Of a stretch of 64,000 bases of DNA, positions 31,540 through 64,000 are shown one piece after another. The stretch spans positions 248,001 through 312,000 of the forward strand of contig JAPYMA010000379.1 of assembly GCA_035041965.1 (NCBI GenBank), read 5' to 3'. The stretch is from Anisakis pegreffii. Lineage: Eukaryota > Nematoda > Chromadorea > Rhabditida > Anisakidae. Every line of letters starts with the position of its first letter. Positions within the stretch are counted from its first letter, which is position 1. Both the position numbers and the translations under genes were made by a program. Below the pieces are notes generated by a model. It saw only the letters and a program-made list of their open reading frames with translations. It searched no databases and had not been told where the DNA came from.

Positions 31540-34500
31540 TCACTGCGTGAAGTAACGTCTTCGGTATTCATTCGCAAGCACCGCTGCGTCCTCTTCGTTC
31601 CTCTTTGGGCAAGGGCAATACTCGGCATCGTGACCCGGCTCTCCTTCTTCGCCTGGTTCACCAGGGGCGCCCTAGAATATGCTCAATGAACGCATCAATT
31701 TAACTGAAGCGATTGAAAAAATACAGACGAATTCATCGATACAAGAAGTGTGTTTCTTGGAAAGTTCAACAGGCACACTGAAGATTGAAAATGAAGAAAA
31801 TATTTCCGATCAAAGAATCTAGTTGAGATATTCAACTGAAATGAAATATATCAAGAAATCTCGCATCTCTTGAGGCTTTTTAAAGTATTGTCGATTATTC
31901 GAATCATTTTTTCTCATCACCGTTATCTCCGTTAAGAAGTGTCATCCATTCAATTGAAAAACATTCAAAACTTCCAACCACAATACGTACAGTAAATATG
32001 ATGGATTGTGCGCTCTAATCAACAGAGGAAACTTCATAGAAAATAAGTCTAAACGAGAGTAAGTGCTGCATATCTGTGCAGTGAATCAATATCTTTGAAA
32101 ATTCGAGGATATCTAAATCGATGGATTCTATGACTGTAGGATGCCAAAGTTTCAGCTCAGTACCTGCTCTCCATCCTTGCCAGCTTCTCCTTCAGATCCA
32201 CGCTCTCCAGGAGGTCCAGTCACACCGACCACTCCAACATCGCCTCTTTCGCCTTGATTCCCTTCGTCACCCGGTGGTCCTGGCACTCCTTTCAATCCCC
32301 TTCTTCCCACCATATGTTCAGTGTTCTCTCCAGTATCGCCTTGCGGTCCCTCTAATCCTACGATTCCAGGTGATCCATTTGGCCCCATCTGAAAAATTGT
32401 TTCAAGAGATCATCAATTGCTTAATCAGTGAAAATTGACGTTCAAAATAAGAAAGCAACCTTAATTGAGTGTTACTCAAATCAGTCGAGGAACCCGTTTT
32501 TACGGCATTGACGAGATGATCGCTCATTTCGACATATTTATTCATCAACGGTCAACAATTCTATTCTTCTCAATATTACGTGTTGGATCATTTGCATCAA
32601 AACTTATCATTCGTCGTGAAATTTGAAAGCAAATCAATTCTTAGGCTACTTCCAGAGATTTCGCACATATTACACCAATGCACTGGCTGGTGATGAGCAA
32701 ATGTGATTGTTCGATAATGACTTATTGAATTAACCTGTCCAGGGAAGCCGGGTTGACCATCCCGCCCAGGCATACCAGCTTGTCCTCTGGAACCACGCAT
32801 TCCTCGTGGGCCTGGTCGTCCTTGCGGTCCTGTTAGTCCTTGTGGTCCAGGTGGACAATGGAAACATTTGTCGTATTGTTGTTGTTGGGCTTGAACATCA
32901 TCTGAATCTGTTCCGTCCTGTGCATTCTGTAAAGACTTCACGTTAGTGATTACGCAAGGATGTCAGGCACGAATGATAAACTGAATCAATTTGAGCAGTC
33001 AAATAAAATTCTACATATTTTTAATGAATCGATGAATGAGATGAAACCGTAAAAGCTATTATTAACAAAAGACATTTTACGTGGCAGACTGTCAAATCTT
33101 TCGAATCCTCATCTTAATTTTAGCATATTGATATAAATTGAACGACAAATTGATAATATGCTAACCGTGCCATCAGCTCCGTCCATACCATCAGCACCAG
33201 GTATACCTTTCGGTCCAGGTGAACCCGCTGGGCATTTATTTTCAGCGTTGCAATTGCACTTTTCTGCAAAACGATTTCAGTGTAGCGATCATTATACGAT
33301 GGTGGATGCCGCTTCGAAAATATCGTCGCGATTTTCGTTGACCGAATTGAATTTCGTTACATTTGCATTCTTTTCGATTGGAAGAAGACGGCATATGATG
33401 CCCTCTTTTGATTTCATGCACTTTTCAATTCTAGTTATTACGGCTGATATCCACAGTTGATGTTTCAGCTAATTTATCGCAAACATTCAGAAGAGGAGAA
33501 AATTTTGGTCGATATAGTTGCATTAAGAATCTTGCATGAATTTTCCCTAAATTGATAATCACCTATGAAGACCTCAAATTTGGAGCAGAACTTCGTCTAA
33601 CAATATTTTCGGTATAATTGCTGTTGTGCAAAGTGAGTAAAGTGAATTCAATTTTGAAGTAACTTACTCGCTTGTTTTTTAGATGGAGGTGCTTGACTTG
33701 GTGGAAGCGCTGAAATGAATCGATTCATTGATTGCTCATAAGTCATAGCTGATAATTGGACTTAATGTTCAAGCATCGTACATTAAACTTAAGCGTCCCC
33801 ACAAATGTAAGCTTAAGCATTCAGTTGGAACGTAAGCATAAAATGAAGCAAGAAAAGTAAAAAGAAATTAGGAGTGGTAAATTTCCCTCGTATTTTTACA
33901 TGAAGTTCTAAGCAAAACTCAATATGCTGAATGAAGATCTTTCTCAAGAATTCACTCGAAATCTACCTTCAGGAAGCCGTCGAGGTGCTTGAGCCTGAGC
34001 TTGAGCTGGAGAGGAGTCATAATAAGATTGGCGACGGAAACGATCCTTCGCGCCCATCGCAACCATGTCCTTCCACATATCACTGGATCTCACCTAAAAA
34101 TAGAATGATGAAACTTTCGATAGATATACCCAAGTTCTTGTTACACACTGTCATTTGATAAAGTCCGCTGGAATAACGAATTCGATACGTCAATATTTGG
34201 TGAACAGAATCATGTTTTCAAACAACTACTTGCTGTTGCTCTGCAATGAAATTCTCTAATAGGACGAAAGAAATTTTGACAGAACTTTCATGAGGTAATT
34301 TATGCATAAATAAAGTGATGTTGCATCGAATAAACGTGACGAATATTGTCTTGAAGAGAGTATTGATGGAATGCTCAACTCGGCATGATTGAAAAGAAAA
34401 CAAACAGTAATTAGCAATTACACTCATTATCAGAGAGTTCAGTTGTTTCGTTGGAGATTGCACATTGCACAAACTGGTGTAAAGATAGAGGAAAAGACGA

Positions 34501-47661: not shown

Positions 47662-50232
47662 TCAGAGCATGAGAGTGCCGAAATCATCACTGCTGTCAAG
47701 ACTGTCGGCCAATGTGGGTGCAACGGCCAATGTGGGTGCAACCGAAGTTGTTCCACAGCTCGAACTCGTCTCGCTTGGATAATCACAAACGCTCAGAAGC
47801 GTATTGAAGACTGTTCCTTGTGGACACCTCATCGGTTCCAGTTTGCCCCAAACGCAACGGTAGTATCGAGAGCAGTCCCGATCATCCACCAAAAATCCAC
47901 CATGCGAAATGCCTCGACAACCATCATCTTTGGATGATGATGCATCACCTAAATTTGCTATTACTGCATGATTTCAATCTCAATAAAGGTAAACGGCATC
48001 CAAACTCAAAATCATCAATAGTACTATTCAGCATACTATAGAGAAACGAACAAAGCTTAAACACATAAACGTATTTACTATCTCAACGTAACATTGGTTA
48101 CTAAAAGGTAAGATCAACATTGCATATGCATCTTCATACTCTTTCTGTGATCTTCACAATGTGAATACACAACTGCTCAGTGCTCATTGTTGAACATTGC
48201 ATAATTTGAAGCTTTATGATGACGTTTGATTGCAATTTGCCATTTGAGTGATTTCAAAACAGAACACAAAAATGTTACCTTCTGTAACAGTGTTATCCGA
48301 TGACGGCCCTGCAGTGGCAGTAGCAGCACTATAGTTGGCACAATCCGGTACGTTCGCTCTGTAATCGCATCCACCAGACACTTCATTAAACACCAGTCCA
48401 CGAGAGCATGACTCGTACTCGAATTGCTCTCCACCGAAACACTGCAAAACAAAACACATTATATATTGTTCAGGCAGCAAAGCTAATAGACAATAAAAAA
48501 ATATCCTAATCTGATAAGGTTAATGTCGCACCTGTATGATTTTAGCGCAGTTCTTCGGATGTCTGTATAATCCATCTTCACGTACCAAACAAAACTGATT
48601 TCTCGATGAGGATCCGTTACCCGTCTCCTGTGAGAGTATTGGTTGACTTTGCATCACCAATGTCTCTTGCTCATGATCATCACTGTTCACTTGATTTGCC
48701 ATCTGATCTTTATTGATTTGTTCTTGAAGCTTCTCGGTTTGGCTTTCACTCCGGTCCTGGTCGTCTTGTCGGTGACTAACTTGAGTACGACCATCAGACT
48801 GAACAGTCGAATCCCGCACGCATTCGCCATTGTTCGACTTGGGGATGCACACACCGACAGTCGGCGAGAAAACGTCATCAATATTAACGCAATGACGGTA
48901 TGACACTGAACCCTGAAAAGTTGATCATCTCATCCGGTTATAATGCCCGACGTGAGGCAAAATTGAATCTAAACTCATTCAAGTGCAACTTTGTTAACAA
49001 ACAGGCAAAATGGCCAACCGCATTGCATAAGATATACTGATTATAGCAAGGGCCAATTGCTATCTTCGAGCCATCCTCAACACCGTCACAGATTGGATGC
49101 GAATATCTCGACACTTTGTCATCACTCATCTTTCGATCCAGCAATGGCACTTGCCAACGCCCACATTCAGCCGCTGGCATGCAAGTGCGAAGAATATGAT
49201 CGAACAAGTAGCCACGAATACAAAATGTCTGCAATTTCAGAGCGAATCGTCATTGAATCATTCAATTTTTTCCCACACCAACTGATCAGATCATCAAAAG
49301 GATCCTTTCATAGCTCGAAAGCGATACAACACCAAAAACACTCACGTCATGTGCAAAACCACGCAGACAAACGATGAAGTCTATACGGCAGAATCCGATC
49401 GCAACAGCAGATGCACCCGAATACGCACATCTTATATCTGAGTTGTAAGCTGGTTGAATGAAAGATTCCAACGATGAATCTGAAAACACCAACGCATTTC
49501 AGTGTTACGACTGAGAATATTAATGACTACAGCATTCGACGGATACAACTTTTCGCATATTTCCTTGAATCACATTGATACTTTTAATCGTGAGCAATAC
49601 GGCGGCTGCCAATAGTAAGCCATGATTACTATTGGCAGCCGAATTAGCCATAAATTAGCCGAATTATCTGAATAATTAGCCGAAAATTGAGAGACGATAC
49701 ATTCCGATGATGTTACTGGATGATGCTTCAAACTATCTTACCGTAGATAGGAAGATTTTCTCCTGGCTGGTTCTGTTGAGCGACGTCTCTTTGATCCGAC
49801 GATGTGAAATCGGGTTGTTGCATTACTGTTTCAGCAATGTGCTGAACTGGCATCAGCGGATCATTTGCTTGCTCATGTTCCAATTCGAAATTGCCACTGT
49901 CACCACATTCACCAGTGGCTATTGGATGATTGCACGAATCAGACACCTAAATCAAATGTACGAATTGAATTATGGGATTCTATTGATAAGGCTGAATAAA
50001 CTGCATCTGGTAAACGGCAGTAACTAGGAACCTTATCAAAGACAAGTCCCTCTGGACACGTATAAACATTTGTTTCTCCATTCACACACATCAGAAAGGA
50101 TTCTGAGCATCCCAATGAAATCGTTGCGCCTTCTCTTTGGGAACAATCGAAATCCAGTTCATCAGCTTCCTCAGATGAACTTCCTCGAAATTGTGGCATT
50201 TCATCATGTGTACGGTGACTTACAACCTGTTC
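47662..50232 (-). CDS. C-terminal part: five chitin-binding domains
   Basis: Exons 50002..50232, 49742..49946, 49346..49479, 49019..49228, 48532..48912, 48279..48441 and 47662..47948. Unlike the rest of the gene, domains here are split by introns: the cysteine ladder of one domain starts in one exon and ends in the next (for example CVNGETNVYTC then SDSCNHP). Linkers are long, acidic and glutamine-rich (a run around SQTEKLQEQINKDQ). The final domain (CRGISHGGFLVDDRDC and RCVWGKLEPMRC) is followed by a short Ala-Pro-Thr-Leu-Ala tail. These domains are the most diverged from the array, suggesting an older conserved core. Confidence 0.82.
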
Positions 50233-53200
50233 CTAAAAACAGTCAGTTAATACCTTCAATGGACTGATATTTACACGTGGAATATATCGAACATTGCCGT
50301 TATTACTATGGATTCAGAAGAATGACATAGAACGATAGTTCGATGAAATAGCGCAATTAGAATCATTCACTCACAGGTGGCCTTGGTGGATTTGGGCTGA
50401 ACCGAAAATGGTGAAGCGATCGCTTTGGGCGGAGTGCTGACACTTGATCATTCTGTTTTCTTTCGTCCTCTTGTCCTGAAGCTAAAACATTCTATGATTC
50501 CATGAAAAATCCACCCCAATTTCATTAACATTATGCTGACCTACTTATCATCCTGCATGCAGCATCAGATGAGTGAGCAGGAAAGCAATTTCAAGAAATC
50601 GATTCGGGCCTTTTCAAACGTTCGATTCATAAAGTCCGCCAAACTAATAGGTCATGTTTCCAAGTCAATAAATTGAGATTAAAATTATGCCAAATATTCC
50701 AAATAAGGCCAACCTTCAATTTCACTCTGCTCTATTCTACTGTACTCCCTTGAAATTCCTACCTCATCATTCCGGCCGAACTTCGCTGTATTTCTCAAAA
50801 CCTACAAAAATTATCATAGATATTATCCATCAAACCTGCTTTCCCAACAGTTTTTCAAAAAAAAAAGAAGTTTTATTCACATGCCTTAGAAGGTACCACT
50901 GCGCCACCACTAAATGGAGGTCGTGCGGTCATGGTGGGATCAGCAGGTACTGGAGGATAAGGATACACCTGGAATATAGGTGATGGCCGGTATGGCAGTG
51001 GTACCGCCGAGAAAGTATCAACACCTCTTTCCGGAACAGAAGGTACCTAAAAGCAAGCAATTGTTAAAATAAAACAATTCAAGTGAACAAATGAAGTAAC
51101 CCTGTCGAAATGAATGCATCACACACCTAAATCGCACGCAACACAGCTTCATAATAATAATATTCATACAGTCATAAAACTGTTATAAATACATGTGATT
51201 ACGTTAACTTATCAATGCTATTTTTCTTCTCAACGAATTTCTCGAAAACTTGACACAGTAATACATGTTTTCATAAGCCAGTTATTTTAGAAGAAATCTG
51301 ATACAAACAAGAAAAAAGCCACTAAAAAACTCACTCGGAAAGGATTGAAATAAACTGGTTTCAAAGGAACCATATAGGCATCACGAACTAGTGCAGGTGG
51401 TCCACCAGGAGGGAATATTCGCTGGCTAGGTGGAGGAGGCACTACCCAAGGTGGTATGAATGCAGTTCTGCCAATCGGCAGCACCGCTGGAAGGTTGAAG
51501 ACATCACGAGCTAAAGAATAGTAATGGAATTCATCACAATGTGACCTTGTTAATGAGGAATAATGATTCATCAACTAAAATCGATATCAAACTAATCGAT
51601 GACGATTAAAGTGTCATACCGAAATAAATAATGATAAAAGCCAACGAAAGATTAACAAACAATAAAGTATGAATGGGCGAGCAAAAGAAACAAGATCAAT
51701 TATTGTGCAGATCAGCAGGCACTAAAACAATGAGCAATGACAGGTAATGATAAAAATGATGATCTTAATGAGACCAACTTAAACGAGCCGGTTCCGGTGG
51801 AGGATAGGGCACCAGGTGAGGTTTATGTCCGAAAGCATCATAAGCGTTGCCATATGGTGGCATTTTGACGAATAGACTCAACGATGGTATTCTTGCCGAA
51901 GGTACTATGAATGTGTCATCAACGTGCTGAAAACTCTCGTTATTAAGAAAATATCTAAAACACTTGCAATATGCCACATTTCCGAACATTGCATTTCTCT
52001 GCGATTTTTACATTTCACCGTTATTAATGAATCTTTAACGATCATGAATGAAGTAAAAAGCTCTTAAGGGCGATAGAAACTCAGCGATGTCAAAATGCGA
52101 CATCGCGGTCATCTCGCCCCATCAAATTTCACACTCACTATGCATGCTGCCGTCGCTCATGGAAATGTGTGTCTTAGCATGTCAATTAAAATCACTCGAG
52201 TTCATCTGCACAACACGTGAGAACTGGCTGGTATTCATAGATTTTGATGGGCAGCGTTGGAAGAAAATTGAAGAAAGAATGTCGAAAAAGATGGTTTCGC
52301 AGGCGACAAATGTGATCCCACTGTGCACAGCACAAGTAATATGTACGCATAAATGCATCGTATTTCGAACGGATTCATATGCAACCAGTGCACTTAGCTC
52401 ACATTAATCCGCCGCTATCTCACTGACCTTCTATCGCTTCCAAACTAAGGAAATGCCCAAAAACGCAGAAATGGAAAACGTCTTAATATCGGCAGACTGG
52501 CAAACTCAGAAATTGTTGAATTCATTTTACTGATAACACAAAGCAAAGACTTACATCTGTCATGCGAATAGGCTTTTTGATTGGAGGAGCAATTGTAGTT
52601 GACACTGGTGGCAGCTCAGTTGGTTCGAATGACGGTGAAATACATTCTGAGATTTGTGTTGAGTAACGACATACTTTCAGTCGGAAATCAAACAAATAAC
52701 CCTGAAATCATCTAATCTTTATCACTGATCATTTCGTTGTACAGTTTCATACTGTCAACATTCCAATACCTGTTGCTTTGTGACTACAACAAATGCAGAA
52801 CAGTCTTTAATGTGATCAGTAGAGTACATAACATGCAATCAATAAGAACGATCAACTCCACCTCATCACAGTGACGTAACACGAACTTTCCGCTACTGCT
52901 GCATTCCAGGTAACTTGCTAAACATTCACCACGCGGTATCACCTCTCCGGCTGGACACTCTGGTGGTTGAATTACATGCGACTGTGGAATGAGTGTTGAT
53001 TTTGTTCGAGGTGGAACTGTGGATACGAGATGAGGCTGCTGGCGGACGGCCGTTGCAGAACAACCAGGTACCGAATAGGCACATTGTGAAATTGTTGGGT
53101 CGAATACGGTGCGGTCAGGACAAGCCTTTTTACGCCATGAACCTTGTACACATTCCACATAAACGGTGGCACATTCAGTGATCACATGTCGAGAGCCAGT

Positions 53201-56200
53201 CGAACAGAACTTAAAATGTTCAGTAGTAACTACAGTGACCTTCAGAACTCCTTCCTGACTAATACTCTTCCCTCAAGCAAAGAGACAATTGGTGGCCAAA
53301 CACCTCTGAACATCTAGACATGGCTGATGCAATAACAGCTGTTAAGTTTACCATAGTCCATTCATTATCGTCACCTCAATCTAACAGAAAAGACTCACTG
53401 CAGTACATAAGCTTACTTTCACACATCCACTCCTTGAAAACGAACATATTTGATAAATCGATCAATAAATCAATAGGTCGAATTAAAAACATGTACGGCA
53501 AAAAAGAATGTGGACTTTTGGTATAACAGTAGACTTGACGTCCGATGCAGTTTTATGAGTTGGCGAGCGTTCCTTGCTGCCGCAATGATAAGGCCAATCG
53601 CACCGTCTCGTATTCTGATCGAACACTAAACCAGCTGGACAAGAGCGGACAGACGCGTGACCACTGGAGCATTTTGTGTAGTCGCGAGAGCACGATCCAC
53701 CGTAAGTGTCGTCGGGAAGATTCGAGCAATCGAACGCATCTGAATCGCAGAAATTTTTTCCTGATATTCCGATTCAAATAGTTGCAAACGAGAAGAGAAC
53801 ACTTCGAATGCCACTAAAACTCAATGGGTATAATCACATACGCGTCTCTGCAGACGTATCAGCTTGCGGGATCGTTGTATCCGGATCGAATAAGACTTCG
53901 GTCATTCCCATCGGACAACCTGCCTCCTCTTCAGCGGGTATGTCCGTATCACAGCTCTCTGGCCAATCACAGATGCCAGATGAAGGCGAGAAAACGAGTT
54001 CGCTCGGGCAGTGATTTACGGTCGCCTTGCCATTCGAGCAAACGACATAGTCGGGCAAACAACCAAGAGAATAGGCACCATCTTCCAAATGTGAACATTT
54101 AATTGCACCTAAGAGAAAGACGTACATTTCACTCGGGTGTAATGCGATAGTTCGATTGAATTTGGAAACTGCAAATTCATAATATTAGTTCACCGCTTTG
54201 AGGCTGAAACCATAAATATTCACCGCCTTGTTTTATGCATCGTCATCTTACGACGTCTGACCTAAAATCGACTTCCGGATTTAAAACAATCAGAGACATA
54301 CCCGGTGACTGCGGTACAGTGTTCATGGTGCAAAACGAAGTAGATTCCAGGCTATCCAACGGCACAGGCTCATGTCCTTGCGTAACTGTGGATGGAATAC
54401 CAGTCGTCAGAGGCTGCGGAGTAGATGCATCCAATGGAATCGCGGTTGGTTGAAGGGCCGAAGAGCAATCGGGCGTGAAATAATCACAACGACGCTTACT
54501 CAAACGGAATACTAAGCCTTGTGGGCATTGCATTTGATAAGAGACACCATTTGAGCATTCGGTAAATGTTGGTGAACAATCGCTGCCATATACACCATTC
54601 GGTAATGACGAGCAGTCTGTTATAACTGAAATGATCCGACCATTCGCAAGACTATTCACAGTGATTGACATTATTCACTGGCGCAATCGCGAATCGAATG
54701 CTAAATGAATATCAAATGTGATTCTCGATCACGCAAATCTTTCTCATCCTTTTGAATACACCGTTAAAATGACGATCGCTTCCACTTAAAAAATATTCGG
54801 TTACAGGCCAAAGCTCACCCGTAGACTGGACATCTGATGTGGTTCCAGGTTGTTGCTGTTGGACAGGTTGAGTCTGATCAGGGTCTCTATGTGGGCTGTG
54901 TCGTATGGGCTGCTCCGTTTGATCAGGCTGCGAGGTAGACGTATCCAACGGAATCGCGGTTGGTTGAAGGGCCGAAGAGCAATCGGGTGTGAAATAATCA
55001 CAACGACGCTTACTCAAACGGAACACCAAACCTCGAGGGCATTGCATTTGATAAGCGACACCATTTGAGCATTCGGTAAATGTTGGTGAACAATCGCTGC
55101 CATATACACCATTCGGTAATGACGAGCAGTCTGTTATAACTGAAATGATCCGACCATTCGCAAGACTATTCACAGTGATTGACATTATTCACTGGCGCAA
55201 TCGCGAATCGAATGCTAAATGAGTATCAAATGTGATTCTCGATCACGCAAATCTTTCTCATCCTTTTGAATACACCGTTAAAATGACGATCGCTTCCACT
55301 TAAAAAATATTCGGTTACAGGCCAAAGCTCACCCGTAGACTGGACATCTGATGTGGTTCCAGGTTGTTGCTGTTGGACAGGTTGAGTCTGATCAGGGTCT
55401 CTATGTGGGCTGTGTCGTATGGGCTGCTCCGTTTGATCAGGCTGCGAGGTAGACGTATCCAACGGAATCGCGGTTGGTTGAAGGGCCGAAGAGCAATCGG
55501 GCGTGAAATAATCACAACGACGCTTACTCAAACGGAATACTAAGCCTTGTGGGCATTGCATTTGATAAGCGACACCATTTGAGCATTCGGTAAATGTTGG
55601 TGAACAATCGCTGCCATATACACCATTCGGTAATGACGAGCAGTCTGTTATAACTGAAATGATCCGACCATTCGCAAGACTATTCACAGTGATTGACATT
55701 ATTCACTGGCGCAATCGCGAATCGAATGCTAAATGAGTATCTCTCGATCACGCAAATCTTTCTCATCCTTTTGAATACACCGTTAAAATGACGATCGCTT
55801 CCACTTAAAAAATATTCGGTTACAGGCCAAAGCTCACCCGTAGACTGGACATCTGATGTGGTTCCAGGTTGTTGCTGTTGGACAGGTTGAGTCTGATCAG
55901 GGTCTCTATGTGGGCTGTGTCGTATGGGCTGCTCCGTTTGATCAGGCTGCGAGGTAGACGTATCCAACGGAATCGCGGTTGGTTGAAGGGCCGAAGAGCA
56001 ATCGGGCGTGAAATAATCACAACGACGCTTACTCAAACGGAATACTAAGCCTTGTGGGCATTGCATTTGATAAGAGACACCATTTGAGCATTCGGTAAAT
56101 GTTGGTGAACAATCGCTGCCATATACACCATTCGGTAATGACGAGCAGTCTGTTATAACTGAAATGATCCGACCATTCGCAAGACTATTCACAGTGATTG

Positions 56201-59200
56201 ACATTATTCACTGGCGCAATCGCGAATCGAATGCTAAATGAGTATCTCTCGATCACGCAAATCTTTCTCATCCTTTTGAATACACCGTTAAAATGACGAT
56301 CGCTTCCACTTAAAAAATATTCGGTTACAGGCCAAAGCTCACCCGTAGACTGGACATCTGATGTGGTTCCAGGTTGTTGCTGTTGGACAGGTTGAGTCTG
56401 ATCAGGGTCTCTATGTGGGCTGTGTCGTATGGGCTGCTCCGTTTGTTCAGGCTGCGAGGTAGACGTATCCAACGGAATCGCGGTTGGTTGAAGGGCCGAA
56501 GAGCAATCGAGTGTGAAATAATCACAACGACGCTTACTCAAACGGAACACCAAACCTCGAGGGCATTGCATTTGATAAGCGACACCATTTGAGCATTCGG
56601 TAAATGTTGGTGAACAATCGCTGCCATATACACCATTCGGTAATGACGAGCAGTCTGTTATAACTGAAATGATCCGACCATTCGCAAGACTATTCACAGT
56701 GATTGACATTATTCACTGGCGCAATCGCGAATCGAATGCTAAATGAATATCAAATGTGATTCTCGATCACGCAAATCTTTCTCATCCTTTTGAATACACC
56801 GTTAAAATGACGATCGCTTCCACTTAAAAAATATTCGGTTACAGGCCAAAGCTCACCCGTAGACTGGACATCTGATGTGGTTCCAGGTTGTTGCTGTTGG
56901 ACAGGTTGAGTCTGATCAGGGTCTCTATGTGGGCTGTGTCGTATGGGCTGCTCCGTTTGATCAGGCTGCGAGGTAGACGTATCCAACGGAATCGCGGTTG
57001 GTTGAAGGGCCGAAGAGCAATCGAGTGTGAAATAATCACAACGACGCTTACTCAAACGGAACACCAAACCTCGAGGGCATTGCATTTGATAAGCGACACC
57101 ATTTGAGCATTCGGTAAATGTTGGTGAACAATCGCTGCCATATACACCATTCGGTAATGACGAGCAGTCTGTTATAACTGAAATGATCCGACCATTCGCA
57201 AGACTATTCACAGTGATTGACATTATTCACTGGCGCAATCGCGAATCGAATGCTAAATGAATATCAAATGTGATTCTCGATCACGCAAATCTTTCTCATC
57301 CTTTTGAATACACCGTTAAAATGACGATCGCTTCCACTTAAAAAATATTCGGTTACAGGCCAAAGCTCACCCGTAGACTGGACATCTGATGTGGTTCCAG
57401 GTTGTTGCTGTTGGACAGGTTGAGTCTGATCAGGGTCTCTATGTGGGCTGTGTCGAATGGGCTGCTCCGTTTGATCAGGCTGCGAGGTAGACGTATCCAA
57501 CGGAATCGCGGTTGGTTGAAGGGCCGAAGAGCAATCGGGCGTGAAATAATCACAACGACGCTTACTCAAACGGAATACTAAGCCTTGTGGGCATTGCATT
57601 TGATAAGAGACACCATTTGAGCATTCGGTAAATGTTGGTGAACAATCGCTGCCATATACACCATTCGGTAATGACGAGCAGTCTGTTATAACTGAAATGA
57701 TCCGACCATTCGCAAGACTATTCACAGTGATTGACATTATTCACTGGCGCAATCGCGAATCGAATGCTAAGTGAATATCAAATGTGATTCTCGATCACGC
57801 AAATCTTTCTCATCCTTTTGAATACACCGTTAAAATGACGATCGCTTCCACTTAAAAAATATTCGGTTACAGGCCAAAGCTCACCCGTAGACTGGACATC
57901 TGATGTGGTTCCAGGTTGTTGCTGTTGGACAGGTTGAGTCTGATCAGGGTCTCTATGTGGGCTGTGTCGTATGGGCTGCTCCGTTTGATCAGGCTGCGAG
58001 GTAGACGTATCCAACGGAATCGCGGTTGGTTGAAGGGCCGAAGAGCAATCGCGTGTGAAATAATCACAACGACGCTTACTCAAACGGAACACCAAACCTC
58101 GAGGGCATTGCATTTGATAAGCGACACCATTTGAGCATTCGGTAAATGTTGGTGAACAATCGCTGCCATATACACCATTCGGTAATGACGAGCAGTCTGT
58201 TATAACTGAAATGATCCGACCATTCGCAAGACTATTCACAGTGATTGACATTATTCACTGGCGCAATCGCGAATCGAATGCTAAGTGAATATCAAATGTG
58301 ATTCTCGATCACGCAAATCTTTCTCATCCTTTTGAATACACCGTTAAAATGACGATCGCTTCCACTTAAAAAATATTCGGTTACAGGCCAAAGCTCACCC
58401 GTAGACTGGACATCTGATGTGGTTCCAGGTTGTTGCTGTTGGACAGGTTGAGTCTGATCAGGGTCTCTATGTGGGCTGTGTCGTATGGGCTGCTCCGTTT
58501 GATCAGGCTGCGAGGTAGACGTATCCAACGGAATCGCGGTTGGTTGAAGGGCCGAAGAGCAATCGGGCGTGAAATAATCACAACGACGCTTACTCAAACG
58601 GAATACTAAGCCTTGTGGGCATTGCATTTGATAAGCGACACCATTTGAGCATTCGGTAAATGTTGGTGAACAATCGCTGCCATATACACCATTCGGTAAT
58701 GACGAGCAGTCTGTTATAACTGAAATGATCCGACCATTCGCAAGACTATTCACAGTGATTGACATTATTCACTGGCGCAATCGCGAATCGAATGCTAAAT
58801 GAGTATCAAATGTGATTCTCGATCACGCAAATCTTTCTCATCCTTTTGAATACACCGTTAAAATGACGATCGCTTCCACTTAAAAAATATTCGGTTACAG
58901 GCCAAAGCTCACCCGTAGACTGGACATCTGATGTGGTTCCAGGTTGTTGCTGTTGGACAGGTTGAGTCTGATCAGGGTCTCTATGTGGGCTGTGTCGTAT
59001 GGGCTGCTCCGTTTGATCAGGCTGCGAGGTAGACGTATCCAACGGAATCGCGGTTGGTTGAAGGGCCGAAGAGCAATCGAGTGTGAAATAATCACAACGA
59101 CGCTTACTCAAACGGAACACCAAACCTCGAGGGCATTGCATTTGATAAGCGACACCATTTGAGCATTCGGTAAATGTTGGTGAACAATCGCTGCCATATA

Positions 59201-62200
59201 CACCATTCGGTAATGACGAGCAGTCTGTTATAACTGAAATGATCCGACCATTCGCAAGACTATTCACAGTGATTGACATTATTCACTGGCGCAATCGCGA
59301 ATCGAATGCTAAATGAGTATCAAATGTGATTCTCGATCACGCAAATCTTTCTCATCCTTTTGAATACACCGTTAAAATGACGATCGCTTCCACTTAAAAA
59401 ATATTCGGTTACAGGCCAAAGCTCACCCGTAGACTGGACATCTGATGTGGTTCCAGGTTGTTGCTGTTGGACAGGTTGAGTCTGATCAGGGTCTCTATGT
59501 GGGCTGTGTCGTATGGGCTGCTCCGTTTGATCAGGCTGCGAGGTAGACGTATCCAACGGAATCGCGGTTGGTTGAAGGGCCGAAGAGCAATCGGGCGTGA
59601 AATAATCACAACGACGCTTACTCAAACGGAATACTAAGCCTTGTGGGCATTGCATTTGATAAGCGACACCATTTGAGCATTCGGTAAATGTTGGTGAACA
59701 ATCGCTGCCATATACACCATTCGGTAATGACGAGCAGTCTGTTATAACTGAAATGATCCGACCATTCGCAAGACTATTCACAGTGATTGACATTATTCAC
59801 TGGCGCAATCGCGAATCGAATGCTAAATGAGTATCTCTCGATCACGCAAATCTTTCTCATCCATGGATTGTAAACAACTTAATCCAAAGACCGCATCTAC
59901 GATTATCAAGTTTCTTGAATCAAGTATGTTCCGAATGGAGAAAGCTTTACTCGTTAAAAGGAAGGAACTCTTGAGAATTATACCACAAACAATAAGAGCA
60001 GTAATTAAAAGCTGAAAGGAGATAAATCACCTTCTGTCGACGGGAGTTGCGTTGGCAGAGATGTAGGTTGAAAACTTGATTGAGGCACGAATGTGGAGTC
60101 ACCAGTGGGCATTCGTTGTGGGGCCGTTGAGCGACACTGTTCAGGCCATACACACTGCTTCATGATAGAATCATAAACAAGTTTTGATGGACAATAACGT
60201 ATGTGCGCAATACCGCCTATGCAAGTAACATATCGAGAGGCACATCTCAATGAGTAGTCACCATCTGAATGGTGAGCACAGTCGAAAGCAACGTCTGAAA
60301 CTTTTTGTCATTTTCGAATAATACAAGAGTATGATTGAAATGTGACGATTGTGTAACACCAATCAATTACTGCGACCAAGAGAACAAGGTTCATAAGATG
60401 TGAAAAAAAAAACTTACCGTTTGCATGTGAAAGTGATGAATCCACCATTGCTGATGCATCTATTGGTCCAGCAGATGCCGTTGGCTGAGTGGTTGCAAAT
60501 GGACGTGGCGCTATGACGGACATACAAGTATCGCTTGGGTATTCACACTGTCTTGACAGCGCATCGAAAAGTAGTCCAGATGGACATTTGAATATCTTCG
60601 CTTTTGAATTTGAACATTCAGCGAACACTGTTGAACATGATCCACCATAGAGCCCATCAGGTAAATAAGAACAATCCATTGAACCTTAAAATATTCACAA
60701 AAATGCAGAGCCATTTCCTCTGGAGCAGAAAAAGAACACAAGAAATAAGAACACTTTGATTACAATTTTGAGTCACTTTCAGAAACATCACACGAAAGTC
60801 GAATAACAATCAGAATAAATCAGAATTCCAACTTTGTTGAGTAGTCGTTAGCGGCGTTTCAGTGGTCATACTGACAGGCGATAGCTGATCAGAGGATGGA
60901 GTACCGTCACTTTCAACACACTCTTGAGGCCATACGCAGAAACGTCGCCTCTCAGAGAAGACAAGACCTTGCGGGCAAAAGCGTCTTATCAACGTACCAC
61001 TTAAGCACGTAACGTATTCAGTGAAACAACCCAACGAGTAATCCCCTGTCGGCAATTTACTGCAATCCACTGCAGATCCTATAAACGTAATTCATTTTAA
61101 TATATGAACAGATCGTTTACAATCTCAAAGATAGTCACACAAGAATAGCACAGTCCGACAGTAGGGTTGAATTTTACGAGCTGTTGCAATTGATAACGAA
61201 TATGCATATAATTACCAGGCACAGAGTGTGCTTCAGTCTGTGGTGTTTGTGTAGTCTCAATCAAAGATTTCACTGTAGGTTCCAATGAAATTATCGAATT
61301 CGATGCTTGCTTCTGACACTGAGGCTTCGGGAAATCGCATTTTGAAGAGTGGTCATCGAAAACGAGGCCGTTTGGACAAACCATAACGAACGGTTTCCCA
61401 TTAGAGCATTGCATAAATGTTGGAGAGCAATGCACACCATACACTCCATCTTTCTGCACTGAACAATCTACTACTGATGGTTCTGAAAATGATTCACAGT
61501 AACCTCTTGAGAATGGCAGATGGCTTGCGTACAGTTCACTTCATAAAACTTCTGCCTTGAAATTACAGTATCATATAAACGAATCATTACAGTAACATTA
61601 TTACTAAACAAATTACAGTATCGTATAAAGAAAAGAATCATATAAAATTGAATGAGCCACGAAAACTAAGCGAAATAAGCAGAACGCATAACCTTGCTGC
61701 TGTTGATGACCTACAGTTTGTCCAAGCGTTTGGACACTTCCCGACCACGGCCGGTCAGTATTGCTGTCGGCTGCCACGGGTACAGCTACAGTGGGCATAA
61801 AGGCTGGTGCGGTCGAAATTGAACACTCCAATGATGGAAAATCACACGCTAATATCTTCGCATTGAAAAGAAGACCCGACGGGCAGTTCATTGATTGTGG
61901 TCGACCGTTTGAACAGTAAATGAATGTATTTGCACAGGGACGGCCGTAAACACCATCTCTTCGAGTTGAACAGTCAACCGGACCTACAATCGCAATGATT
62001 CGCTACAACGTTGGTCATCAGACCTACTCTTAACGAAGATAATGAATACTTTCTAGGCAAAATGCTTCAGACTCTGCTTATAAGAATGCTTCGATCGAAT
62101 GCATACACTGCATAAGAACACAATACACTGAAAGATCCTCTGCTGAATTCCATGAAAACAGATACAATGGTCAACTAGTGCAATAAACACAATTTCAAAT

Positions 62201-64000
62201 GAGCAACTAAATCACCTGAGTCTATTGGCATTTGAGTGTTTGGCGGTAAGGTAGCTGAAGATTGGGCTACTGAATCGGCGTTAAGTGGGTTATCTGTTGC
62301 GAACCCGCACTCAGATGAGGGTAGGTCACATACCTTACGATCAGAGTAAAAAACAAGGCCTGATGGACAGTGCTGAATGTGCGTAAGACCGTTTGAACAA
62401 TGAACGAAGGCTGTAGCACAAGACGTGCCGTATATACCGTCAGCCAACGACTGACAATCTATCACACCTGAAAATTGAATGACTCATAATTATCATCAGC
62501 GTTGTAAACAATAACGAACGGCACTGCCACCATCACCGGATTTCAATCAGAATTATTTGCATTTTCGTACCTGATGTTGGGGCAGTCGATTCGGGCACTG
62601 CTGGATCTTGAGGAAGGGGTGAAGTCGCTTGTGACGATGGTGAACTTGGTGATGGAAGACAATTCATGAATGAAGGGTAATCGCACGACCGAGTTTTTGT
62701 GCTGAATAAAAGTCCTGGCGGGCACGACATTTTGAAAGTATGACCATTGGCACACTGAACATAGTCAATCGAACAGTCCGAGCCATAGATGCCGTCCGCC
62801 TTCATAGAGCACATCTCCGATGAAACTGTAAAATTATGAATGAAAATGAATTCATTAGGTAGAAGTACAGCTTTAGGATTATTGCTATCAGAAGAAGGCA
62901 ATCTTTCGAAGCTAAACTCTAATCCGCTAACCTCAATCCAACACATCACTTTCGTAAAGCTGATCGCAAATCTATTTTCAAATGCCCAGTTTTTAATTAA
63001 CAAAAATGATATTATCATCAAAAATTATTTCAAAATAATTGTTGAAGACAATCAAACCTTCGAATCTCTGTTCATCACTCTGCGCATTTCCGTTGTTGGA
63101 CGATGGAGCAACGAACTGATTTTCAGCGTTTGATGTTGGTTTCATGACGAATGGTGTTGACTGTTTCGAGCAACGTTTTGACGCGTAAGCACATCTCGCT
63201 ATCGATGGACTGTACACTGTACCAAATGGACATTTATGGATCGTTGAAATACCATTCGAGCAAATCACAAACGACGAAGAACAATCACCGCCATACAATC
63301 CATCGCCTAGTTTCGAGCAATTGAATAATCCTGAAATCAGCATCGCTTCAAATGTACGGCCTTACTTCCAAAATTTTAATGTGATTACATCACATTGTGC
63401 ATCTAAACTATATGGGCATGAAAATGGGATGCTTTTTACCATATTTCTTTGGTATCTACTGGCTTCATGGTGAATAGTGGAGCGGTGAAGCAACTGACCA
63501 GTCTCATCATCCATAAGCATGCCGAACGATCCATCGGAATGCTGTTCCATCAAACAATCTTCAGATGGTACACAACGTCTTTGTGTTGAGTCATAAACTA
63601 ATCCATCCTCACATCTACGTTTCACTTGGAAACCATCAACGCAAGACCAGTACTCCGGCGTGCATCCCAACGAATAGTCACCATCGCTCATTTTTGAGCA
63701 ATCAATTGAAGGCATTGCTGGAAATTTCTCGTTAACAAATGGAACACTCAGCAACATTTCGAAGACACTGGCGTTTTTGAAACAGAGGAAATCTGAAGAA
63801 ATGAAAACGGATAGCATGGATTTTAAAAGCCAGTATACCTGCAGATTGCTGACTCTTTTCAGCAGCTGCATTAGACTGATCTTGTTGCGCTCCCTTGGAT
63901 GCACAGTTCATTTCATTTGGATACACACAACGTTTTTTCACACTATCAAACAGCAAATCTGCCGGACACTGTGTCTTGTGCGCTCGACCATTTGAACACA
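47662..64000 (-). CDS. Giant multi-domain chitin-binding (CBM_14) protein, 5' end outside
   Basis: One minus-strand gene runs from beyond 64000 to the TGA at 47662-47664. About 36 exons join in consistent phase. It encodes at least 30 six-cysteine chitin-binding type-2 (peritrophin-A) domains, with Thr/Ser/Pro/Gln-rich linkers and a proline-rich middle. N-terminal and array exons each carry one domain and are bounded by phase 1 introns on both sides; several C-terminal domains are split by phase 0 introns. Such domains bind chitin outside the cell. In nematodes, multi-CBM_14 proteins such as CBD-1 and the CPG proteins sit in eggshell layers, so an eggshell role is plausible, with cuticle or pharynx as alternatives. 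A split into two genes near the proline-rich part cannot be excluded. Signal peptide and start are not in the window. Confidence 0.85.
47707..47742 (-). repeat. 18-bp tandem duplication in the last exon
   Basis: Two perfect copies of an 18-base unit (47707-47724, 47725-47742) encode a repeated six-residue Val-Ala-Pro-Thr-Leu-Ala type motif near the C-terminus. It is in frame and likely length-variable. Confidence 0.85.
49603..49641. repeat. Perfect 16-bp hairpin in an intron
   Basis: Arms at 49603-49618 and 49626-49641 are perfect reverse complements around a 7-base loop. It lies in the intron between exons 49742-49946 and 49346-49479 of the chitin-binding gene. Short ttagccgaatta-like repeats follow it to about 49684. 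Confidence 0.85.
50375..51926 (-). CDS. Proline-rich middle region of the chitin-binding gene
   Basis: Exons 51785..51926, 51335..51510, 50881..51046 and 50375..50481 keep frame with the domain exons on both sides. They encode no cysteine-rich domain but tracts such as PHLVPYPPPEPA, PPWVVPPPPSQRIFPPGG and YPYPPVPADP, with tyrosine and aromatic residues between. Such Pro/Tyr-rich segments often act as extended spacers or cross-linkable parts of extracellular matrix proteins. The exon 50881-51046 runs into TGTGAATAA right at its donor, so an unspliced transcript would stop here, giving a possible shorter form. Confidence 0.65.
52555..54108 (-). CDS. Central chitin-binding domains after the array
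   Basis: Exons 53842..54108, about 53528..53739, 52862..53254 (or start 53209) and 52555..52701. Four CBM_14 domains: CSHLEDGAYSLGC, CSNLPDDTYGGSC, the domain containing CATVYVECVQGSW, and one split between the last two exons (CPAGEVIPRGEC then DFRLKVCRYS). The donor of the second exon is uncertain; GTTATA and GTCAAG both keep frame. Linkers are Thr/Pro-rich. Confidence 0.75.
54302..59747 (-). CDS. Eleven near-identical chitin-binding exons
   Basis: Exons of 321 bp (107 codons): 59427..59747, 58913..59233, 58399..58719, 57885..58205, 57371..57691, 56857..57177, 56343..56663, 55838..56158, 55333..55653, 54819..55139, and the diverged last one 54302..54625. Each begins in phase 1 with Val-Ile-Thr-Asp-Cys, carries one six-cysteine domain (CSSLPNGVYGSDC, CSNGVAYQMQC, CDYF), then a Gln/Pro/Thr/Asp linker with PDQTEQ and PVQQQQPGTTSD. 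The unit appears in two main forms, with CPRGLVF or CPQGLVF after the fourth cysteine, and Leu, Pro or Arg before the sixth. Introns between them are also almost identical. Because exon and phase are symmetric, units can be gained or lost without breaking the frame. Confidence 0.92.
54430..59861 (-). repeat. Tandem array of 514-bp exon plus intron units
   Basis: About 10.5 copies of a unit made of a 321-bp exon and a 193-bp intron. Two consecutive introns (55654-55837 and 56159-56342) are 184 bp because of the same 9-bp deletion, giving 505-bp spacing. The same deleted form appears at the right edge (about 59830), where repeat similarity stops near 59861. At the left edge similarity stops inside the linker of the last exon near 54435. 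Intron identity is about as high as exon identity, so duplication or conversion is recent. Confidence 0.95.
60031..64000 (-). CDS. N-terminal-side chitin-binding exons, diverged
   Basis: Ten exons, each one CBM_14 domain with phase 1 borders: 63839..>64000 (cut by the window), 63499..63717, 63058..63330, 62571..62825, 62216..62467, 61693..61983, 61216..61482, 60833..61078, 60418..60684 and 60031..60294. Domain openings include CSKMSDGDYSLGC, CSKLGDGLYGGDC, CSMKADGIYGSDC, CQSLADGIYGTSC and CSYLPDGLYGGSC. Two subtypes alternate: one with DGxYG and a serine-threonine ladder, the other with DYSLGC or DYSLRC and a tryptophan-proline near the end (CVWPQEC, CVWPEQC). Linkers are rich in Ser, Thr, Pro and Gln, likely O-glycosylated. 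The donor of exon 60833-61078 (GTTGGA) is weak. Confidence 0.88.

What the first reader, a model, noticed from the sequence alone, without database searches (positions are those of the whole stretch)
54430..59861. Recent eleven-fold amplification of one chitin-binding exon with its intron
Eleven exons and the introns between them repeat almost without change, while the flanking chitin-binding exons of the same gene are strongly diverged. This looks like a single exon that was recently amplified by unequal crossing-over and kept alike by conversion. Symmetric phase 1 borders let copy number vary without frame damage, so protein length may be polymorphic.
Basis: partly seen in the sequence, partly recalled or inferred. 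Interest (0 to 1): 0.75.

Follow-up and report, generated by a model that had tools for sequence, protein, structure and literature searches.

The report
Recently amplified chitin-binding exon array
One exon of a large nematode gene, possibly for an egg coat, has been copied together with its intron into eleven almost identical tandem units that stay in frame, so the length of the protein could vary between individuals.

Summary
On the minus strand of 59862-54411 lie 10.6 copies of a 514-bp unit (321-bp exon, 193-bp intron; 184 bp in two copies): eleven chitin-binding (CBM_14) exons, ten introns. Eleven flanking exons are 24-40% identical in protein. All 23 modelled exons are phase 1-1 and stop-free. 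Outside one 51-bp block, exons and introns are equally invariant (3/270 against 2/193 variable sites), so whole units were homogenised as DNA. The block holds two mainly synonymous types (A, B); all four A/B x intron-SNP combinations occur, so units exchanged sequence. Ascaris suum has co-linear upstream domains but only diverged domains here, so the array most simply arose in this lineage. A Cooperia protein with the same C-terminal modules carries its own array of 12 similar domains of another type. Architecture and evolution resemble human LPA KIV-2 and abalone VERL. Copy-number polymorphism, splicing, assembly correctness, egg-coat function and CBD-1 orthology are untested.

The parts
53842..64000 (-). 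Window part of the 23 modelled exons of the multi-CBM_14 gene (the model starts at 64500, beyond the window end, in L009); all introns phase 1, all exons multiples of 3, no stop
   Evidence: the gene goes on 5' to the contig end (L009) and 3' to about 47.7 kb
54411..59862 (-). Tandem array, 10.6 copies of a 514-bp exon+intron unit
59427..59747 (-). Array exon 1 (321 bp, type A)
58913..59233 (-). Array exon 2 (type B)
58399..58719 (-). Array exon 3 (type A)
57885..58205 (-). Array exon 4 (type B)
57371..57691 (-). Array exon 5 (type A)
56857..57177 (-). Array exon 6 (type B)
56343..56663 (-). Array exon 7 (type B)
55838..56158 (-). Array exon 8 (type A)
55333..55653 (-). Array exon 9 (type A)
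54819..55139 (-). Array exon 10 (type B)
54302..54625 (-). Array exon 11 (type A; near-identical to the array over its first ~190 nt, then its own linker)
59748..59862 (-). Acceptor half of the intron upstream of array exon 1, the 5' border of the array
59234..59426 (-). First of ten array introns (193 bp; introns 7 and 8 are 184 bp)
60031..60294 (-). Upstream flanking CBM_14 exon, diverged; counterpart of A. suum domain 26
53842..54108 (-). Downstream flanking CBM_14 exon, diverged; best A. suum match is domain 28 (57%)
47662..48620 (-). Two C-terminal CBM_14 modules shared, in the same order, with Cooperia, Cercopithifilaria and Panagrellus proteins (the first module is split over two exons)

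Best explanation
A coding tandem repeat inside a large nematode protein made of chitin-binding (CBM_14) domains, most likely an egg-coat (vitelline-layer/eggshell) scaffold of the CBD-1 type. One phase 1-1 exon and its intron were multiplied in this lineage by unequal crossing-over between neighbouring copies, and the copies are kept alike by continuing unequal exchange and short-tract conversion. Every gain or loss of a 514-bp unit adds or removes one complete 107-residue piece (disulfide domain plus flexible linker) without breaking the frame. The protein effect would be a longer flexible tether with more chitin-binding sites of one kind. Shown: the array, the frame symmetry, DNA-level homogenisation, reshuffling of markers, absence from the A. 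suum protein. Inferred: crossing-over as the process, egg-coat role, chitin avidity as the effect, variable copy number. The confidence given is for the amplification and homogenisation part; the egg-coat role alone I put at about 0.6.
For: 11 exons and 10 introns near-identical; all 23 modelled exons phase 1-1 and stop-free; exon and intron equally invariant outside the A/B block, 3/270 against 2/193; all four combinations of A/B exon type with each of two intron SNPs; no homology of the array flanks to the unit (three comparisons, p 0.27-0.47); A. suum co-linear upstream but with diverged domains here, highest pairwise identity in the whole protein 0.64; CBM_14 by Pfam and by fold; 6 of 10 variable exon sites synonymous where 2.3-2.8 are expected (p 0.013-0.036), so the types diverged under constraint on the protein; no exon+intron tandem repeat in the stretches around CBM_14 matches on 6 of the 9 other contigs that have such matches.
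Against: Copy number rests on one assembly; the longest exact repeat is 782 bp, so short reads could hardly resolve it, and the sequencing method is not known here. Polishing could make units look more alike than they are. Two further markers do not show all four combinations with A/B: exon site 84 and the 9-bp intron deletion each give three, and recurrent mutation at the two single intron SNPs is not strictly excluded. The alternation of A/B and the pairing of identical introns are only suggestive (permutation p 0.089 and 0.091). No RNA or protein data. The egg-coat role comes from C. elegans literature on CBD-1, whose sequence was not obtained.
Confidence: 0.78

Rival explanations
1. Assembly artefact: one or a few real units were expanded, or many units over-homogenised, during assembly or polishing.
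For: No reads could be examined; exact repeats up to 782 bp; the contig ends 3.6 kb beyond the window, inside the gene.
Against: 9 of 10 exon+intron units are distinct, with combinations of markers that include a 9-bp intron deletion and private changes; both flanks are unique and uninterrupted, no N in 67.6 kb; the borders are clean.
Confidence: 0.12
2. One very recent burst made all units, without continuing conversion; the A/B difference is just the two seed exons carried along as an AB dimer.
For: A and B alternate in 8 of 10 neighbour steps; exact repeats of 518 and 513 bp at offsets of 1028 and 2056 bp, multiples of the 1028-bp dimer.
Against: All four combinations of exon type with two intron SNPs need exchange inside units or repeated mutation; the seven A/B differences sit in 51 bp while the rest of the unit is almost identical between A and B units, which whole seed exons would not give unless they were converted first.
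Confidence: 0.2
3. Old array kept alike by purifying selection on the protein.
For: Changes between A and B are mostly synonymous.
Against: Introns are at least as alike as exons; the A. suum protein has no such array.
Confidence: 0.02
4. The gene is not an egg-coat gene but another chitin-binding matrix gene (for example pharyngeal or cuticular).
For: C. elegans has eleven genes with this domain, one of them noted as expressed in the pharynx (passages of PMC1635065 and PMC5603424); CBD-1 orthology was not tested.
Against: The A. suum relative carries the name 'Chondroitin proteoglycan 2', that of an eggshell protein, but this is only a database label.
Confidence: 0.3

Closest known systems
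[quoted passage not shown]
   Same: Tandem coding repeat of exon plus intron that encodes a disulfide domain, beside diverged single copies of the same domain; unit types A, B, C defined by synonymous exon substitutions; duplication or gene conversion invoked (passages of PMC4378929 and PMC7613587; abstract starts of PMC11462820 and PMC6314250 in the listing).
   Different: KIV-2 units are about 5.5 kb with two exons, 1-40 copies and known polymorphism; here one exon in 514 bp, copy number in other individuals unknown. In LPA the types also differ at more than 100 intron sites; here the A/B difference is confined to 51 bp of exon.
Abalone VERL (egg vitelline envelope receptor for lysin)
   Same: Egg-coat protein with repeats 3-22 at least 95% alike beside diverged repeats 1 and 2, homogenised by unequal crossing-over or conversion (passages of PMC2704960).
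   Different: VERL repeats are another domain and repeats 1-2 adjoin 3-22 without introns; VERL is a sperm-lysin partner; here no gamete function is shown.
Nematode CBD-1 (C. elegans H02I12.1)
   Same: Multi-CBM_14 protein; CBD-1 sits in the vitelline layer and anchors the EGG and PERM complexes (passages of PMC5603424, PMC12273631, PMC7712855).
   Different: The C. elegans sequence was not obtained, so orthology is untested.
Cooperia oncophora P0017 and Trichostrongylus colubriformis P0001
   Same: P0017 shares both C-terminal modules with the window gene (65% and 62%) and has 12 domains linked at 80% identity or more; P0001, on an 8.9-kb contig, has 7.
   Different: Their unit is another domain type (41% identical to the window unit), their domain spacing varies, and the two species' arrays are about as alike between as within species (0.853 against 0.890 and 0.833). 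P0001 does not show the C-terminal modules. Only protein models were seen, no DNA.

Membership tests
CBM_14 (PF01607) chitin-binding domain | Profile score above the curated cut-off | tested here: met
   39.3 bits against 22.1 for the array exon; 4 of 4 exons tested pass
CBM_14 (PF01607) chitin-binding domain | Six-cysteine CBM14 fold | tested here: met
   Mean pLDDT 91-96 over residues 1-50; best PDB matches include chitotriosidase CBM14 and tachycitin, best E 1.3e-3, none at or below 1e-3; 5 cysteines invariant in 14 aligned exons, the sixth lies where the alignment shifts
Coding exon+intron tandem repeat (LPA KIV-2 kind) | Exon and intron repeat together, nearly identical, beside diverged single copies | tested here: met
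Coding exon+intron tandem repeat (LPA KIV-2 kind) | Units symmetric in phase, so copy number changes keep the frame | tested here: met
   321-bp exons, phase 1-1
Coding exon+intron tandem repeat (LPA KIV-2 kind) | Copy number varies between individuals | not testable with these tools
   one assembly only
Concerted evolution | Exchange between units: marker combinations that single mutations do not give | tested here: met
   all four combinations for two intron SNPs against the A/B block; three of four for exon site 84 and the intron deletion
Concerted evolution | Units more alike within than between species for the same array | tested here: inconclusive
   A. suum has no such array; no close relative with the array was found, and the P. 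univalens model stops where the array would begin
CBD-1 orthologue | Best reciprocal match to C. elegans H02I12.1 | not tested
   sequence not returned by any of the three protein searches
Nematode gene family of P0017, P0015 and P0010 | Same two C-terminal CBM_14 modules in the same order | tested here: met
   52-65% and 58-65% identity, best hits; a crinoid protein (P0019) also reaches 54% for module 1 but only 39% for module 2
VERL-like gamete recognition protein | Binds a sperm partner | not testable with these tools
   needs an experiment

The most novel reading that the evidence does not exclude
Nematode egg coats have evolved the VERL pattern on an unrelated scaffold: the same long CBM_14 egg-coat gene has independently grown homogenised, length-variable domain arrays in different lineages (from different domains in this ascarid relative and in trichostrongyloids), because array length and sameness tune sperm access, the polyspermy block or shell assembly.
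Probability: 0.15. Interest if true: 0.85.

Novelty: new member of a known kind. Interest (0 to 1): 0.55.

Why it matters
It is a clean natural case of exon-plus-intron amplification caught young: near-identical introns show it is recent, phase explains why it is tolerated, and A. suum shows a state without it. If the gene is the egg-coat scaffold, with a second array of other origin in trichostrongyloids, it gives a testable parallel to abalone VERL and to LPA KIV-2: does domain number in an egg coat vary within a species, and does it change fertilisation or shell strength?

Tried and rejected
Purifying selection alone: rejected by intron identity. A dispersed or transposon-like repeat: a piece of the array found only the array in the own genome, 11 of 11 matches, and no Rfam family or tRNA lies in the window. 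A general habit of CBM_14 genes in this genome: not seen in the stretches fetched around matches on 6 of the 9 other contigs (29 of 36 matches off contig C286; contigs C31, C1684 and C321, with 7 matches, were not fetched). Derivation of the unit's linker and donor half-intron from the present flanks: no similarity above 500 shuffles in three comparisons. Alternation of A/B and pairing of introns as significant order: not significant (p 0.089 and 0.091). Higher variability of exons than introns: not significant by sites (p 0.23). Equating the unit with A. suum domain 27 by position: only 42% identity, so left open. Ditylenchus destructor P0003 has 6 domains linked at 80% or more, but it is not among the 16 alignments shown for either C-terminal module, so it is not counted as the same gene. 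Concerted evolution within trichostrongyloids: not clear, between-species identity 0.853 against 0.890 and 0.833 within. Species identity: not established; the co-linear A. suum and P. univalens proteins point to an ascarid relative. Papers: searches were searches (one search found no paper), seen as listings; of seven papers (PMC5603424, PMC2704960, PMC12273631, PMC4378929, PMC7613587, PMC1635065, PMC7712855) only passages were read. I saw no description of this array in them, but most subscription papers are not held; the CBD-1 paper of 2018 (PMC6143425) is not held.
Full report
What is there. The window lies at 248001-312000 of a 315,599-base contig of a 122.7-Mb assembly in 1740 contigs. 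On the minus strand, from the contig end down to about 47.7 kb, runs a gene made largely of chitin-binding CBM_14 exons. I modelled 23 consecutive exons from 64500 (in L009, just beyond the window) to 53842: every one has a phase-1 acceptor and a phase-1 donor, a length that is a multiple of three and no stop. The gene's 5' end is beyond the contig; its part downstream of 53842 was only sketched.

The array. Array exons 1-10 are 321 bp each, separated by introns of 193 bp (8 of 10) or 184 bp (2 of 10). Exon 11 shares its first ~190 nt, has five mismatches in nt 191-207, then goes into its own linker. At the other end the array begins inside an intron, at 59862, with only its 115-bp acceptor half. 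The near-identical block is thus 59862-54411, 10.6 units. 9 of 10 exon+intron units are distinct, with 7 exon forms, 4 intron forms and 6 protein forms.

Divergence. Mean pairwise difference is 1.46% in exons and 0.48% in introns. 10 of 321 exon positions and 2 of 193 intron positions vary (plus a 9-bp intron indel); the difference is not significant (p 0.23). Seven of the exon positions lie in 51 bp (nt 104-154); outside it 3/270 exon and 2/193 intron positions vary (p 1.0). Equal invariance of intron and exon is what DNA-level copying gives and what selection on protein does not. By contrast the 11 flanking exons aligned (10 of the 12 modelled ones and one further downstream) are 24-40% identical to the array exon in protein.

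Two unit types. In gene order the exons read A B A B A B B A A B A. A and B differ at seven sites (in exon 10 the last one has the A state), five of the seven synonymous. Over all ten variable sites six are synonymous, against 2.3-2.8 expected (p 0.013-0.036 depending on transition bias); so the difference built up under constraint on the protein. All four combinations of A/B with each of two intron SNPs occur, while exon site 84 and the intron deletion give three each. The simplest reading is that pieces of units have been exchanged over about 200 bp; repeated mutation at the single SNPs is the alternative. Whether A/B alternation and the four pairs of identical neighbouring introns are real order is open (p 0.089 and 0.091).

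Origin. The unit's linker and donor half-intron show no similarity to the sequences that flank the array (three comparisons, p 0.27-0.47). The simplest history, inferred, is a seed of two neighbouring related exons whose 5' parts were alike; unequal crossing-over between them multiplied the first exon with its intron, and the second survives as exon 11 with its own linker.

Relatives. Three protein searches found nematode relatives. Ascaris suum F1KPH8 (P0016, 32 domains) and Parascaris univalens (P0014, 26 domains) run parallel to the window gene upstream of the array: in the domain tree 7 of the 11 upstream window domains (1, 2, 4, 7, 8, 9, 11) lie in starred groups with an A. suum counterpart, in the same order; domains 3, 5, 6 and 10 do not. 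That tree has 117 rows and only 50 columns, with many forks unresolved; of near-identical array domains I gave it only 3 of 11 from the window, 4 of 12 from Cooperia and 3 of 7 from Trichostrongylus, and it holds 6 of the 20 proteins. Downstream of the counterpart of the last upstream exon, A. suum has six domains whose highest pairwise identity is 0.54; the whole protein's maximum is 0.64. The next window exon after the array best matches A. suum domain 28 (57%), so by position one A. suum domain (27) lies where the window has eleven, but the array unit is only 42% identical to it. Loss of an array in A. suum cannot be excluded from one species. The P. univalens model stops just before this point and says nothing. 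The three array rows in the tree form one clade (97/89).

Other arrays. Among 20 proteins examined (the window and 19 hits), groups of six or more domains linked at 80% or more occur in the window (11), Cooperia oncophora P0017 (12), Trichostrongylus colubriformis P0001 (7) and Ditylenchus destructor P0003 (6); smaller groups occur in P0005 (3), P0012 (2 and 2) and P0013 (2), none in the other 13. P0017 ends in the same two modules as the window gene (65% and 62% identity), as do Cercopithifilaria P0015 and Panagrellus P0010, which have no such group; a crinoid protein, P0019, also reaches 54% for the first module but 39% for the second. P0001 is on an 8.9-kb contig and does not show the modules; P0003 was not among the alignments shown. 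The trichostrongyloid unit is 41% identical to the window unit, far below the window's 97% within. So, most simply, the same kind of gene has grown arrays from different domains at least twice; gene models of the other species were not checked on DNA, and within against between species their arrays show no clear concerted evolution.

Control in the same genome. CBM_14 gives 68 matches in the genome (a lower bound), 32 on this contig and 36 on nine others. Stretches on six of these nine contigs (29 of 36 matches) were fetched and hold no exon+intron tandem repeat; the only repeats reported are a 21-bp and a 69-bp tandem.

Structure. AlphaFold2 on an alignment of 14 of the gene's own exons gives a confident domain (mean pLDDT 91-96 over residues 1-50) and a disordered linker (residues 69-106 under 50); the best solved matches are human chitotriosidase with its CBM14 domain (E 1.3e-3) and, lower, tachycitin (E 0.03). 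Sequence search also lists CBM14 proteins.

How it probably works. In C. elegans CBD-1, a secreted chitin-binding-domain protein of the vitelline layer, anchors the EGG and PERM complexes; its RNAi gives embryos with more than one sperm and misshapen shells (passages in PMC5603424, PMC12273631, PMC7712855). If this gene has that role, each added unit adds one chitin-binding module and about 55 residues of linker. That effect, and the role itself, are inferred.

Comparison. Human LPA KIV-2 is the closest in DNA architecture, down to A/B/C unit types defined by synonymous substitutions (passages). Abalone VERL is the closest in possible biology: 20 repeats at least 95% alike beside diverged ones in an egg coat (passages). 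The phenomenon is therefore known; this member, its young age and the second array of other origin in strongylids are what I did not see described.

Limits. One assembly, no reads, no RNA, no named species, no C. elegans CBD-1 sequence.

Noticed in passing
window 32597-32962 (-): Collagen triple-helix exon (PF01391); the cuticle-collagen look is recalled, not tested.
   Followed up: no
L009 1-3599 (contig end): The contig ends inside the CBM_14 gene, so its signal peptide and first domains are missing; A. suum has 14 further domains upstream of the counterpart of the first modelled exon.
   Followed up: partly
P0014 C-terminus: The Parascaris univalens gene model stops right where the array would begin, perhaps because a repeat there broke the model or the assembly.
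   Followed up: no
L013 2500-2645: 21-bp tandem repeat beside another CBM_14 gene.
   Followed up: no
L010 8801-8980: 69-bp G-rich direct repeat downstream of a second region with nine CBM_14 matches.
   Followed up: no
window 52200-53800: The downstream part of the gene seems to depart from the one-domain-one-exon, phase-1 pattern: split domains and proline-rich exons.
   Followed up: no
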